DNA of 64,000 bases, taken from contig OU696588.1 of NCBI GenBank assembly GCA_916048095.2, positions 1,225,001 through 1,289,000 on the forward strand, read 5' to 3'. The notes beneath the pieces were generated by a model, which was not told where the DNA came from, ran no database searches, and saw only the letters and a list, made by a program, of their open reading frames with translations. The number at the start of each line of letters is the position of its first letter. Position 1 is the first letter of the stretch. Position numbers and translations under genes: made by a program. This DNA comes from Sacculina carcini. Its lineage: Eukaryota; Arthropoda; Thecostraca; Sacculinidae. Shown piece by piece: positions 6,753 to 56,400 of the stretch.

Positions 6753-8532
6753 TTATTTTTGTTGCTTTCTCAGTTGTTGCACCAGTTGTCGTGTGCAAGT
6801 GGCCGATGCGTTGGCGCACGGATATTCGGTGCCCAGATCTCGCGCATTACTGCCCATTAGCGCCGCCTGCCGGTACTTTTTGCGTCCCGAATGCATCCTG
6901 TTGTTTTTGTTGATTGACAGACGGTAATAGCGTGAGAGACGCGATCAAATTATTATTACCATTATTATTATTATTATTATTATTAATTAGAAGAAAACCC
7001 AGTAGTATGGGAAGAGTGCAAACACTATTACCACGCTGCAGTTTCCCTATATGCCGAAAGCACTCAAAAGATGTTCAGAGATAAAGGGAACTCGAAAAGT
7101 AAAGGTTTTAGTGAGGAAGATGAAAGCTATTGAGTCAAGGAGCAAAAGAAATAGACGATGAATCAAATGAAATTGTCCAATTTTTCAATGGTTTCGTGAC
7201 AGCAGCAGCGTCTTACCCGTACACCTTGAGAACGAGTCGCTCAGCCACGGTCGGTGCTGATTCCGTGTCGTTGTTGTAGTATTCAGCCTCGCACACCAGC
7301 CGGGGGAAACATCCGCGCTTATCAAAATACGACGCCAACTATGCAACACACACACACACACACACACACACACACACACACACACACACACACACACATA
7401 CACATGTTTCGATGCTCAGCCAACGCCACCTAGATACATATAGACACACCTGTATCTAGGTAGCATTGGCTCAGCACACATCTCGCCTACTGTTGTACGC
7501 TAATTGAACGGGTTTATCCATCAGCTAGGGGCGGCGCCAGGATTTTCCGGTGGGGTGCTGAGGAGGGCTTGGCGAAACTTGAGGAACTACACTCTAAATG
7601 TTCATGGTGCGGATTTTGTTTTTGGGGCGGAGCTCAGGGGTCTTGGTATTTTGGGGGGGGGGGCTTTCAGCCACTCCAAGCTCCACTTAACGCCGCCACT
7701 GCCATCAGCAACTCCGCTCCAGTGTGCCAGCAGTTACCCGGTTGACGATGAGCTCTTAGCTGAACGTTTTATAAGCTGGATTTTGATCTGGACCAAGGCA
7801 GTATTCCGCAAGGAGTAAGGGAGTATTCCATGGGAGTATTTGTAGGATTCCTGTATTCGGAGAATTCCGCTAGTTGGAGATCCGCAATTTGGAGTGCCCA
7901 CTGTGGCTTCATCTGGCTCAGAGTGCTCACGACAATGATCAATGATAGTAGCTACTTCTTTGCTCCTCGTCTCTATAACTCCTTGCCTTCTCGTATCCGG
8001 TCATCCCCTTCACTTCGTTCCTTCTCTTCTGCTCTGCATGATCATCTTCTTGTGTTTACCTCTCCCTGTTGAATGGGTTCGTGCTTTTCTTTTGTATATA
8101 CGCCTGTTAAATTTTGTCTGTCATGCTCTTAGCTATTCTGACATTTGTTTCATTTATTTTATAAACATACATACTATATTATTTTTTATCTCATCCTGTC
8201 ATCGCACCATTGTATATTTGGCGCTATATCAAATACATGTTTACCTGAACCAGTCTCTCCATGCTGGCTTGATTGGACACTGGCCTACTGGGGACGCCAG
8301 CTGCGCCGCTGTGCAACTGAACCTTGATGGAAGTGTTGTCATTAGATGCCTCGCCGAGATAATTGTTCGGTCGCAAGCTGTCGGCACTTGCGACCGAACT
8401 AGAGGCGGTCGGTGATGGCGGGCTGTCGGCAAAATTCATCATTCGCCGGTGAATGGCTGGAGTGTAGCGGTGCGTTGCATATCTAGTGCTGCCACCTGGT
8501 GGTGGCGGAACGAACCAATGATATCTGTGCAT
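6753..8532 (-). CDS. DM4/12-like cysteine-containing protein, 3' exons
   Basis: Two exons are firm and one is partial. The last exon (6897-6753) ends in TAA. The preceding exon (7338-7217) joins it in phase 2. The next exon upstream ends at 8245 (CAG|GTAAAC, phase 0) and its frame is open to 8532; its acceptor is uncertain, and an in-frame CAG near 8319 is one option. The C-terminal part reads YFDKRGCFPRLVCEAEY, then ERLVL, then YRQAALMGSNARDLGTEYPC. The C-x5-C-E spacing with Arg between, a Leu-rich stretch and the late YPC fit the arthropod DM4/12 family, whose function is unknown. The upstream part is Ser/Ala/Pro-rich. A TG repeat precedes the 7338 acceptor. The intron 7339-8244 contains a family B MITE and a LINE tail. 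Family assignment is by motif only. Confidence 0.6.
6965..7125 (+). repeat. Interspersed repeat family C (AAATCCAGTAGCATGA type)
   Basis: An ATT-rich head followed by a conserved body (about ACCCAGTAGTATGGGAAG, then ACTATTACCACGCTGC, then CACTCAAAAGAT) and an A-rich tail. The same order recurs at 22365, 44685, 49765 and 60188. It looks like a short retroelement or LINE 3' tail; no coding content. Confidence 0.7.
7350..7397. repeat. (CA)n microsatellite
   Basis: About 24 CA units, read as TG on the strand of the DM4/12-like gene, ending 12 bases before its exon acceptor at 7338. Confidence 0.95.
7528..7705 (+). mobile_element. MITE family B copy
   Basis: Starts GGGGCGGCGCCAGGATTTTCC and ends CGCCGCCACTG. 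The interior shares the family block GAGGAACTACACTC then TGTTCATGGT. Confidence 0.75.
7925..8243 (+). mobile_element. LINE 3' end fragment (L2/CR1-like)
   Basis: A frame with APRLYNSLPSRIRSS and FSSALHDHLL matches the conserved C-terminus of L2/CR1-type LINE ORF2, like the longer copy at 18985. After the stop comes a short 3' UTR with CATCCTGTCATCGCACCATT, also present near 38588. Confidence 0.7.
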
Positions 8533-8533
8533 T

Positions 8534-8984
8534 TCGACATTTCACAGGAGGTCATTTTGGAAATGCTGGATTGTATAGGGTGAACTCTCCACCATATAAA
8601 TATTGTTTATATACTGCTATAATTACAAATAATAATGATAATATATAAAACCAAAAATAATATTACTAAATAAAAAAATGAGTAACAATTAAAATATTAT
8701 GTGAGATTAATTCTATTACTTGTCTATTACTTGAGACTGTAAATTTTCAACTGAAATGAACTGCTTATATATATATTTTTTAATTTCATTTAATTTCTTC
8801 TTGTTTTTAAAGGGATATAAGCCTTTATGGCTTCCCCCGACACATGAAAATATGTTGTTTGCGTTTATGGTATATGTTTACATGTGTCGTTTCGAAGTGC
8901 AATACAATACAATACAATGTACTGAGTAAACTTGAGTGTGTGTGTGTGTGTGTGTGTGTGAGTGTGCATGGATCAAGTGTGTAT
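8534..8984. other. AT-rich stretch, no gene seen
   Basis: Mostly A/T with short ATAAT runs, an ACAATACAATACAAT repeat near 8900 and a TG run at 8936-8960. Nothing coding could be supported on either strand. Confidence 0.6.
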
Positions 8985-53252: not shown

Positions 53253-53450
53253 GCACCATTCATATCCACGCCAAATGTTATCTAACACTATCCAATGTAC
53301 ACTGAGGTATTTATCAACAATATGCGATCGGTTTGTAGTGAACGCTGGTCGATTTCTCCTCTGCGGCAGTCAGTATGTTTTGCGATCTATTCTGTTGTTT
53401 TAGTAGTATTTTGATCGAGGCTGCCGTTGTAAAAGTCCTCTTGCCGTCGT

Positions 53451-56400
53451 CTACTCCAACTTGTACTCGCGTGATCGAGCTATCGGGCGGCGTTGTTGGA
53501 TATAGGAGCGATGGAAGAAGTGTGCAAACAGCACAAAGTAGCTGAAGTACATAAGCAGGGCCAGCTTGATGTTGAGCATGCTGACATCACAGTGGCCTCC
53601 GTTGGAGATCACATGGTAGGCGTAACCGTTGACTGCGCATCCAACCACCATCTGTGACAGCTGTGCCATTGTGATAACGATCGACACCCATCTGAATATC
53701 GCCAACCAACACACACACACACACATGCAGAAAAAGAGGGTATAGTCAGTGTTTCAGTGTTCGCTCCGTTTTCATTTCAGCAGTCCGTTATTGCACCCCC
53801 TGAATTCTTACTAGCTGTGTGAAAAGAATACAAACAACGTACTGACAAAACTTTCATATTCAAATTCATTCATTCAGCTTGAGATTCCCAAGTGGATTAT
53901 GTAAAACGTTTTTCCAGGAAAAATACAACCCATAGGTAAACATATTTTGTTTATACATTAATCCTCGGATCCTTTATAAAGCAGGCTCTTATCCTCTATA
54001 TCCGGATGTGTTCTGAGGGTCGCGAAGCGAAAAAGGTTGGGAACCCCTGCGCTAGCAGGAGCTGTACGTACCGCGGTACTTTGAAACGCAGTGCCTTGAA
54101 CATGTAGTAGGTGTACATGAGCGAGTGTACACTGTAGTTCATCACGACGAACCAGCGAGCCGTAGATATGTAGTCCGAGTAGCTGACACACACACACACA
54201 CACACAAACAAACATACAAATGGGAGAATAATTTCGGTGACCATACAGATACCGTAGATGCCGGCCAATAAGCCCATACTATAATCCAAAATTATCCTCC
54301 ATATTTTCCTTTAGTGGGCTTAATGTTGATGATGATGATAATGACCAGACAGATATTTCAGGGTATTTATTCAGTCTACCAAAGTGTTATTTATCCAAAG
54401 CAACAAACTTCATTATAGTATAAATCATATCAACCTATGATAAAGTACAAATATGTGCAATAGTTTGATGAAAAACGTAAGGAGGAATTATTTTCAACAT
54501 ACTCTAGATGTGGAACAAACAGAGCATTTGAAAAATACTACCGGAGATGGGTTCATTTTGGGTGGGCTTATTACACCGTACTACTAAAAGCCTAGTATTT
54601 CAGGCATGAAATGGTGATATGGTCTTATGGTGTCTTATGGTGATATGGCTGGGACCTACGGTATTTGATTCACTGAGATGTATATCCTGTGCTTCAATGA
54701 CACAATGGCTATATACTGAGTTATTTCGCTGAATCGGCATATACTGCAACGGCGTATTATTGGAAATTCTGTTGATTCGCCCAAAACATAGCCTAAGCGT
54801 TGTGGTGTTCCACAGGTGGTGTTCTGGGTAAACACACACACACACACACAGAGAGAGAGTGTGTGCGTGTGAAGCATGGAAAGAGTAGGAGAACGATGCT
54901 GAGACAAATGTTGCACAATACTGCAGGCGTATCAGATGGCCATTGCCAGAGGTGACGCATGGAGATGAGAAGTACACACACACACATACACACGCATACA
55001 CACATACACACGCATACACACGCATAATGACACGAGCATTTGCACTCACTGTTGCTACCGAGTGGGTGGAGCATGCATGCCACGGAGCTCATGTTGCATG
55101 TGTGTGTATTCATGCTTGTGTATGTATGCGTGTGTGTGTGTGTGTATGTTGACCTACTGATGGGTATCGCGAGTGTGACATTGAACGCGAATGCTCGTGT
55201 GTGTGTGTGTGTGTGTCGGTGTGTTTTTGCACGCGCTCGCACACACACATACACATACACATACACACACACCTGTAGCCATCGTCTACCACTGACTTGC
55301 ATTTGAATGTCCGACACTGCCTGGGCAACTCTTAAAACTTGCACTTGCACTCTCAACACTTGCCTGGGCAACTCTTGGGCAACTCTCGACACTGCCTGGG
55401 CACGAGGTGCCTGAACAACTCTTAAACAATTCCACATCCTTGCACCCCAAGGAACCAGCCTGCTAGGAACCGGTGAAGAACCCCCGGTTAAGAACTGCTG
55501 ATCTACACCACTCGATGCGACAAACAGTCGGATAAACTATCATTGGTACTCAACAGAGAAATAATTGGTAACCACCGCCCACCACGAATTCTTGCTTATT
55601 CAATACGCTTCATTATCAGTTATCACCTCCTAACTTGTGAGTATTTCCCCATGAACGTGCATGTAGGACTGAAATGATGCAGACACAACATCTTCTGTGT
55701 GCCTGTCGGTGTTATCTCACTGAGTTGTCCCCGCAGATATGAGTCAAACGCTCGTGGCTCCCTGCCTTGCAAAGATCATACTTCTGTTTAAACATCTGTG
55801 TTGTGGTCTGGTTGACAATTTCATTCGGTTATATATTCCAATCATTTACTGCCCTGTTTGGGAAGTTGTTTGTTTGTTTGTGTGTGTTTGTTAGCCAACC
55901 TGAACCAGGTGAAAATGAGCACGGTGACGTGATGATACCAGTGCAAGAAGATGAGTGGCTGTTTGCGCAGCACTATGAACACTGTGTCGCCCAGCTCAGG
56001 AACCTTGGACAATGTGAACAGATAGCTCCATAGAGCCAAGGCAGGGTTGCTCTCCATGTAGCTGCCCACCAAACACACACACACAGTAAAAATAGGTTAG
56101 AGGGTTGGTTGGAGACAGGATAATACGAGCACAGCTCATCTCCTGTGGTATGCAAATAGGTGAGTACACGGAAACACTTAGGCACGGACTAGAGTCGTTA
56201 GGGATATATAAAGTATAGTTTCCCAAAAAGGTATATCGACATTTTGAACAGTCTAGAAAAGGAGGTAGTGGAATCCAGCAGTAGTGGACCATTTCAGCAT
56301 AGATTAGACAAAACAGTGGGTTTGGCGACAGCAAAGTCTGACAGTCTTGCTCATCTCCTGTACACAACAACTAGTGAGTACATTAGGGTCAGTATTCAGC

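What the first reader, a model, noticed from the sequence alone, without database searches (positions are those of the whole stretch)
7339..56080. TG repeats sit directly before about half of all 3' splice sites, always in sense orientation
Of roughly 38 introns whose borders I could fix by phase, about 18 have a TG dinucleotide tract within about 40 bases upstream of the acceptor, and in none of these is it CA. Examples: HIBCH exons at 48536, 49535 and 50031; all three ELOVL6 acceptors (56061, 54182, 53691); SLC25A16 exons at 25361, 24879, 24287 and 23678; TPH exons at 33334, 34263 and 36375; PSRC1-like exons at 42908 and 41237; both lectin-like acceptors; the DM4/12-like exon at 7338. Minus-strand genes show CA on the plus strand, so orientation follows the gene. 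In several cases the TG run replaces the pyrimidine tract. UG repeats near acceptors are known to bind CELF and TDP-43 type proteins, so this may mean UG-dependent splicing or a bias in repeat birth at UG-tolerant tracts. The prevalence is my reading count, not a statistic.
Basis: partly seen in the sequence, partly recalled or inferred. Interest (0 to 1): 0.75.

Follow-up and report, generated by a model that had tools for sequence, protein, structure and literature searches.

The report
UG tracts replace pyrimidine splice tracts
In this unnamed animal genome the introns examined mostly end in a stretch rich in U and G, often a pure UG repeat and hardly ever CA, where most animals have a run of U and C, which suggests that its splicing machinery reads a different 3' signal.

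Summary
In the window, 13 of 24 curated acceptors have a TG tract (8+ nt) in the last 60 nt of the intron and 1 of 24 a CA tract. In two gene families chosen without regard to TG elsewhere in the genome, chaperonins and myosins, the counts are 64 of 103 for TG and 0 of 103 for CA. Random windows give 4-9%. Interior windows of the same introns give on average 6.5 of 47, against 32 of 47 at the 3' end.

The wider fact is that the polypyrimidine tract is nearly gone at these sites. Bases -40 to -4 are about 44% U, 30-34% G and 9-11% C, and 3 of 103 acceptors have 8 pyrimidines in a row. At homologous myosin introns TG comes and goes; CA was not seen.

The genome holds two head-to-head U2AF2 genes, each in one exon, with identical UHMs and diverged RNA-binding domains, and three loci with a TDP-43 N-terminal domain.

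Best reading: UG-rich tracts do the work of the pyrimidine tract. The zebrafish-type AC-GU bridge is not supported as the general rule. There is no RNA evidence.

The parts
48508..48530 (+). TG tract before the HIBCH exon starting 48536
   Evidence: protein matches ECH_2
49471..49521 (+). TG tract before the HIBCH exon starting 49535
49981..50027 (+). TG tract before the HIBCH exon starting 50031; the intron 49684-50030 has a GC donor
56073..56085 (-). TG tract (CA on +) before the ELOVL6 exon starting 56061
   Evidence: ELO family
54186..54206 (-). TG tract before the ELOVL6 exon starting 54182
53709..53725 (-). TG tract before the ELOVL6 exon starting 53691
25380..25395 (-). TG tract before the SLC25A16-like exon starting 25361
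   Evidence: Mito_carr x3
24883..24916 (-). two TG tracts before the SLC25A16-like exon starting 24879
24299..24333 (-). TG tracts before the SLC25A16-like exon starting 24287
23693..23755 (-). 63-nt TG tract before the SLC25A16-like exon starting 23678
24036..24098 (-). 63-nt CA tract (sense) near the donor end of the same intron 23679-24130; complementary to the 23693-23755 tract. One of the few introns that fit the AC...GU bridge.
   Evidence: own duplex -121.7 kcal/mol, strongest of 38
33318..33326 (+). short TG tract before the TPH exon starting 33334; a CA tract (33298-33310) lies just upstream
   Evidence: Biopterin_H
34236..34260 (+). TG tract before the TPH exon starting 34263
36342..36363 (+). 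TG tract before the TPH exon starting 36375; the donor end of this intron (36010-36028) is CA-rich
42921..42933 (-). TG tract before the PSRC1-like exon starting 42908 (gene identity not tested)
41249..41271 (-). TG tract before the PSRC1-like exon starting 41237 (gene identity not tested)
7346..7398 (-). TG tract before the exon starting 7338 of the gene read as DM4/12-like (no Pfam match)

Best explanation
In this genome the stretch just upstream of the 3' splice site, where a U/C (polypyrimidine) tract is expected, is a U/G tract. It is read by the 3'-splice-site machinery: most likely by a U2AF whose large subunit has been duplicated and has diverged in its RNA-binding half, possibly helped by a UG-binding protein of TDP-43 or CELF type. 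Because UG is the accepted signal, TG microsatellites can arise, expand and be kept in that place in the sense orientation. CA repeats would remove the U residues and are purged. Shown, for the genes sampled: position, orientation, enrichment, lack of pyrimidine runs, presence/absence variation between paralogues, and the two U2AF2 genes. Inferred: that the tract is functional, which protein reads it, and that the sampled genes stand for the genome.
For: TG tract of 8+ nt in the last 60 nt at 64 of 103 acceptors and CA at 0 of 103, in nine chaperonin loci on 6 contigs and myosin genes on 10 contigs; for tracts of 12+ nt 44 against 0, for 20+ nt 17 against 0. P is below 1e-41 against any of the backgrounds tried. 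Enrichment is also against the same introns' interiors: 32 of 47 introns against a mean of 6.5 and a maximum of 12 in 2000 draws; density falls from 245 to 96 to 53 nt/kb over -60, -120 and -180. Base composition -40 to -4 is U .44 G .34 A .13 C .09 (chaperonin) and U .445 G .30 A .14 C .11 (myosin); 8+ pyrimidines in a row at 1 of 45 and 2 of 58. Acceptors without a tract are also U/G-rich and lack a pyrimidine run (39 of 103; longest Y run median 3). At 8 of 8 homologous myosin intron positions with 2+ copies, some copies have TG and some do not; no CA at any of the 58. U2AF2: two head-to-head copies, each in one open frame, UHM 114/114 residues identical, RRM1 67/83, linker 8/29, RRM2 47/78. 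Duplication of U2AF with changed 3'-end preference has a measured precedent in Fritillaria (PMC13326754, two Results sections read).
Against: No RNA evidence of any kind. 39 of 103 acceptors have no TG tract of 8+ nt, and the share is uneven: myosin acceptors on C23 1 of 6, C35 0 of 4, C19 4 of 11; chaperonin acceptors on C36 4 of 8. So a repeat is not needed. In the ab initio set, acceptors without a TG tract (59 of 84) look like background, with no U/G excess; I put this down to false introns but did not prove it. In both U2AF2 copies the aromatic residues that stack on uracil are kept (alignments; Y152 becomes F in one copy), so plain U binding is probably intact and a change of specificity is not shown. 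The U2AF2 duplication could be unrelated. Intron interiors of chaperonin genes are also TG-biased (TG 89, CA 45 nt/kb), so part of the bias is not tied to the acceptor. The one genome-wide count that was answered shows no clear excess.
Confidence: 0.6

Rival explanations
1. Passive sorting of microsatellites. The genome is flooded with CA/TG repeats. Near acceptors CA is purged because it breaks the splice signal, while TG is merely tolerated; the tract does no work of its own.
For: TG/CA repeats are very dense genome-wide (413,550 and 407,961 overlapping 24-mers on the two strands). Tract presence differs between paralogous introns. CA is also absent from -120 to -60 in the 52 introns.
Against: Pure tolerance predicts TG at the interior level; it is about 5 times higher in number of introns (32 against 6.5 of 47). 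Homology-placed acceptors without tracts are U/G-rich too and have no pyrimidine run that could be the real signal.
Confidence: 0.25
2. AC...GU bridging introns as described for zebrafish: a CA-rich donor end pairs with the TG-rich acceptor end, replacing U2AF2.
For: CA tracts are over-represented in the first 60 nt of introns: 16 of 85 donors; P .0026, 1e-4 or 4e-7 against backgrounds of 8.5%, 6.6% or 4.1%. TG 10 of 85: P .33.075 or .003. A few introns have striking complementary ends, such as 23679-24130 (-121.7 kcal/mol) and C1:3003471-3003732 (-77.6).
Against: Ends of the same intron do not pair better than ends of different introns: chaperonin set P .53, n 31; window and neighbours P .07, n 38, of which 13 were picked by hand, partly because their ends looked complementary. 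Most TG acceptors have no CA partner at the donor: in the chaperonin set TG is at the acceptor of 5 of 7 introns with a 5' CA tract and 18 of 24 without one. In the window donors CA and TG are equal, 3 and 3 of 23.
Confidence: 0.08
3. Regulated exons. UG tracts recruit TDP-43/CELF-type proteins that repress or tune inclusion, as at cryptic UG exons in mammals.
For: Three loci with the TDP-43 N-terminal domain, two of them head to head. In mouse, 29 of 52 cryptic exons that appear on TDP-43 loss carry a run of UG (PMC5446763, passages seen).
Against: The exons counted here encode conserved parts of chaperonins, myosins and metabolic enzymes and largely follow each other in profile coordinates, so they look constitutive. 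A repressor site at over 60% of acceptors would be odd.
Confidence: 0.07

Closest known systems
Canonical U2-type introns with a polypyrimidine tract bound by U2AF2/U2AF1
   Same: GT(GC)-AG ends, mostly C or T before AG (99 of 103), ordinary donor consensus, U2AF2 present. AG was required and C/T and consensus donors were favoured by my placing rules, so these agreements are partly built in.
   Different: The tract is U/G, not U/C; pyrimidine runs of 8+ nt at 3 of 103 acceptors
AC/GT repeat introns of zebrafish (Lin et al. 2016, not held; known here from one sentence each in PMC9198270, and PMC9508853; details recalled)
   Same: GT/TG repeats at the 3' end of introns, mild CA excess at the 5' end
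   Different: Here the 3' TG stands alone in most introns; no preference for pairing within an intron
Fritillaria borealis introns with duplicated U2AF (PMC13326754; abstract and two Results sections read)
   Same: U2AF2 duplicated; 3' signal departs from the usual pyrimidine tract (there a tract interrupted by purines at introns ending in AC)
   Different: There the terminal dinucleotides changed (AC, AT) and U2AF1 is duplicated too; here AG ends serve, the tract is UG, and the two U2AF2 genes are single-exon neighbours with identical UHMs; U2AF1 was not examined
UG-rich cryptic exons repressed by TDP-43 in mammals (PMC5446763, passages)
   Same: Sense UG runs within or next to the exon
   Different: There such exons are normally kept out; here they are exons of conserved genes

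Membership tests
Canonical polypyrimidine-tract 3' splice sites | AG end preceded by C or T | tested here: met
   99 of 103 have C or T at -3; AG was required and C/T favoured when acceptors were picked, so non-AG ends could not be seen (1 of 59 myosin stretches had no AG candidate)
Canonical polypyrimidine-tract 3' splice sites | pyrimidine-rich tract upstream of AG | tested here: not met
   Y about 53-56%, C 9-11%, G 30-34%; run of 8+ pyrimidines at 1 of 45 and 2 of 58
Canonical polypyrimidine-tract 3' splice sites | U2AF2 gene | tested here: met
   two copies above the curated cut-off
Canonical polypyrimidine-tract 3' splice sites | branch-point motif upstream | tested here: inconclusive
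   CTNAY in 17% of 103 upstream 50-nt stretches, no control made
AC...GU bridging introns (zebrafish type) | GU tract at the 3' end | tested here: met
   64 of 103
AC...GU bridging introns (zebrafish type) | AC tract at the 5' end of the same intron, able to pair | tested here: not met
   as a general rule: CA at 16 of 85 donors, own-intron pairing not better than shuffled partners; single introns such as 23679-24130 do meet it
AC...GU bridging introns (zebrafish type) | independence from U2AF2 | not testable with these tools
   needs a depletion or in vitro assay
U2AF-duplication type (Fritillaria) | second, diverged U2AF2 | tested here: met
   RRM2 47/78, UHM 114/114 identical
U2AF-duplication type (Fritillaria) | second U2AF1 | not tested
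   no search made
U2AF-duplication type (Fritillaria) | changed RNA preference of the second U2AF | not testable with these tools
   binding assay needed
TDP-43-repressed UG exons | sense UG run close to the exon | tested here: met
TDP-43-repressed UG exons | exon normally excluded | tested here: inconclusive
   exons encode conserved, largely contiguous profile segments, which argues against exclusion; no RNA data

The most novel reading that the evidence does not exclude
A whole animal genome has moved its major-class 3' splice-site signal from a polypyrimidine tract to a UG tract, with a duplicated U2AF2 whose RNA-binding half diverged while its spliceosome-contacting half is kept identical. 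Microsatellite growth then supplies the signal directly.
Probability: 0.4. Interest if true: 0.88.

Novelty: new variant of a known kind. Interest (0 to 1): 0.72.

Why it matters
The pyrimidine tract is treated as a near-universal part of animal 3' splice sites. A genome in which it is replaced by UG over most introns offers a natural test of how U2AF specificity and splice signals evolve together. It bears on why mammals need TDP-43 to silence UG-rich exons, and it shows how a microsatellite can be raw material for an essential signal. If the UG tract turned out to be passive, the case would still show strict orientation sorting of repeats at splice sites.

Tried and rejected
Self-trained gene finding drifted into overprediction and was dropped (after first versions); a two-strand version with fixed splice consensus was used instead, and it too predicts false introns, so it carries little weight. 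Counting (TG)6 near TTTCAGG genome-wide (92 matches on the minus strand, which I take as one per site; 383 on the plus strand, where overlapping starts count; reversed-pattern control 88 and 188) says little. The chance rate near repeats is unknown, the CA comparator did not complete, and TTTCAG proved rare among the placed acceptors. Taken alone it gives no clear support for a genome-wide excess. A second count anchored on TTGCAGG did not complete. The pUG fold (quadruplex of 12 UG repeats; start of an abstract in a search listing, PMC12276007) was set aside because only 17 of 103 acceptors have tracts of even 20 nt. Protein kinases were dropped as an exon source because the listed matches were whole domains in long open frames. 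Mitochondrial carriers were asked for once (not completed) and not again. COX1 search for the mitochondrial code and hence the phylum gave nothing; the species stays unknown. Residues of U2AF2 RRM2 (human N268, N271, N289, S294, here P/G, T/S, H/H, T/T by the alignments; numbering recalled) are recalled as base contacts; the terms were not found in the papers opened, so they are not used as evidence. Literature: ten searches; none of their listings named a genome with UG tracts in place of the pyrimidine tract. That is a statement about these searches only.

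
Full report
What was claimed.

The window. All 16 acceptors given with coordinates read TG tract, AG, open frame (by eye). Proteins joined across most of the intron positions match Pfam families: Biopterin_H (2.4e-163), Mito_carr (9.9e-74, three stretches), ECH_2 (9.1e-100), ELO (1.4e-71). 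The 'DM4/12' protein has no match. Counting only curated acceptors of the four supported genes, 13 of 24 have a TG tract of 8+ nt in the last 60 nt and 1 of 24 a CA tract, the latter together with TG at exon 33334. Two of the 24 lie upstream of the part given to Pfam. Donors show 3 TG and 3 CA of 23. A gene finder with a strand-symmetric background, whose acceptor model sees only positions -3 and +1, gave TG in 26 and CA in 2 of 153 predicted introns of 120+ nt in 264 kb; with better-scored flanking exons the counts are 15 and 0 of 52. The TGTG excess lies mainly between -35 and -10 (84 acceptors). In that set the 59 acceptors without a TG tract look like background; the set contains false introns.

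Independent genes. The genome has 264 Mb in 43 contigs. I chose two conserved, exon-rich families before seeing their introns, after kinases had proved intronless: Cpn60_TCP1 (53 matches; 51 used, two matches on C4 and C12 not fetched) and myosin head (82 matches listed; the best 60 after one intronless match). Acceptors were placed at an AG near the profile edge (nearness, with C/T before AG favoured), donors at the best GT/GC near it, without regard to TG or CA. Chaperonins: TG at 33 of 45 acceptors, CA at 0; donors CA 11, TG 5 of 45. Myosins: TG at 31 of 58 acceptors, CA at 0 (one of 59 stretches had no AG candidate); donors CA 5, TG 5 of 40 fetched of 60. Pooled: 64 of 103 against 0; for 6+ nt 70 against 1; for 12+ nt 44 against 0; for 20+ nt 17 against 0. 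By contig the myosin share runs from 0 of 4 (C35) and 1 of 6 (C23) to 11 of 15 (C4), the chaperonin share from 4 of 8 (C36) to 7 of 7 (C15). Random 57-nt windows: TG 4.7%, CA 8.5% in the window; 4.2% and 4.1% in the other fetched sequence.

Not an intron-wide property. In 52 introns (31 chaperonin, 21 window) TG density is 245 nt/kb at -60 to -3, 96 at -120 to -60, and 29-75 further in; CA is 11, 0, and 11-22. For 47 introns of 300+ nt, 32 have TG in the last 60 nt, against a mean of 6.5 and a maximum of 12 in 2000 draws of interior windows. The lack of CA alone is not significant in this test (1 against 2.7, P .12); over the 103 acceptors it is (P .0002 or .02 by background).

The pyrimidine tract is missing. 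Composition at -40 to -4 is U .44 G .34 A .13 C .09 (chaperonin), U .445 G .30 A .14 C .11 (myosin) and U .425 G .33 A .15 C .09 (window). The longest pyrimidine run has a median of 3, and 8+ occurs at 1 of 45 and 2 of 58. The 39 acceptors without a TG tract are U .41 G .24 A .21 C .15, again with a median run of 3. So the microsatellites look like the extreme of a general UG-rich signal.

Turnover. Among myosin paralogues, 8 of 8 homologous intron positions with two or more copies are mixed: TG in some copies, none in others. No CA occurs in the 58 acceptors. Repeats seem to arise and disappear, but only in one orientation.

Bridging. Since zebrafish introns with complementary dinucleotide repeats at both ends are reported to splice without U2AF2 (one sentence in the review PMC9198270; also PMC9508853; the original is not held), I tested it. 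CA is over-represented at donors (16 of 85; P between .0026 and 4e-7 by background), and a few introns have complementary ends (23679-24130 in the window). But ends of the same intron pair no better than ends of different introns (P .53, n 31; P .07, n 38). The bridge may serve a subclass; it is not the rule.

Possible readers. U2AF2 is present as two genes, head to head on C26, each in one open frame (profile 61-510 and 66-510; L049). Their UHMs are identical (114/114 residues, 355 of 360 nt), while RRM1 (67/83), linker (8/29) and RRM2 (47/78) differ. Aligned to human U2AF65 the stacking aromatics are kept, with Y152 replaced by F in one copy (the role of Y152, F262 and F304 is stated in PMC7408900, passage). 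Three loci carry the TDP-43 N-terminal domain, two of them head to head on C26. In Fritillaria, duplicated U2AF subunits with changed 3'-end preference accompany a change of introns (PMC13326754; abstract, sections 21 and 22). In mouse, UG runs accompany exons that appear when TDP-43 is lost (PMC5446763, passages), which suggests that exons with UG runs can be used by a normal spliceosome when not repressed. These are reasons to propose that UG tracts act as the 3' signal here; no assay shows it.

Against it. The only genome-wide count answered shows no clear excess and has no CA comparator. Some genes mostly lack the tracts. Interiors of chaperonin introns are TG-biased too.

Verdict. The most likely reading is a UG-for-pyrimidine exchange at 3' splice sites over much of the genome, in which TG microsatellites can serve as the signal. 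Passive sorting of repeats is the main rival. The species is unknown and there is no RNA evidence; gene families other than the six tested could differ.

Noticed in passing
G000:C26:1032223-1036658 (L049): Two single-exon U2AF2 genes, head to head, with identical UHM halves and diverged RNA-binding halves: looks like gene conversion limited to the 3' half.
   Followed up: partly
G000:C26:5886003-5886991 and C29:895365-895583: Three TDP-43 N-terminal domain loci, two of them head to head like the U2AF2 pair on the same contig.
   Followed up: no
G000:C20:3.26-3.46 Mb, C24:7.69-7.78 Mb, C31:15-87 kb, C15, C19, C6, C35: Arrays of long open frames of up to 2897 aa; several hold two or more protein kinase domain matches about 1.39 kb apart.
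   Followed up: no
L051 (C26 start) and L052 (C36 end): Two of three contig ends fetched are arrays of an 11-base unit containing TTAGG (CACTTAGGTAA / CACTTAGGGCA), possibly an unusual telomeric or subtelomeric repeat; the third (C1 start) reads N.
   Followed up: no
G000:C1:3.064-3.100 Mb (L015-L018): Six copies of one ORF about 3.76 kb apart, near ORFs that look like a flavivirus-type helicase (motif recalled); probably a virus-like or mobile element. Described only.
   Followed up: no
49684-50030: HIBCH-like intron with a GC donor (CTCAAG|GCAAGC) and a TG tract running almost to the AG.
   Followed up: partly
23679-24130: Intron with a 63-nt CA tract at the donor end and a 63-nt TG tract at the acceptor end, complementary to each other.
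   Followed up: yes
25959-26253: SLC25A16-like intron ending in a TTG trinucleotide repeat in place of TG, again U/G and in sense orientation.
   Followed up: no
36505-36959 and 37200-37605: Two minisatellites (18-bp unit, 25 copies; 23-bp unit, 17.7 copies) inside one TPH intron.
   Followed up: no
G000:C23:0.533-0.549 Mb and C36:4.868-4.887 Mb: Myosin genes with two exons matching the same profile segment (about 378-436), as in mutually exclusive exons.
   Followed up: no
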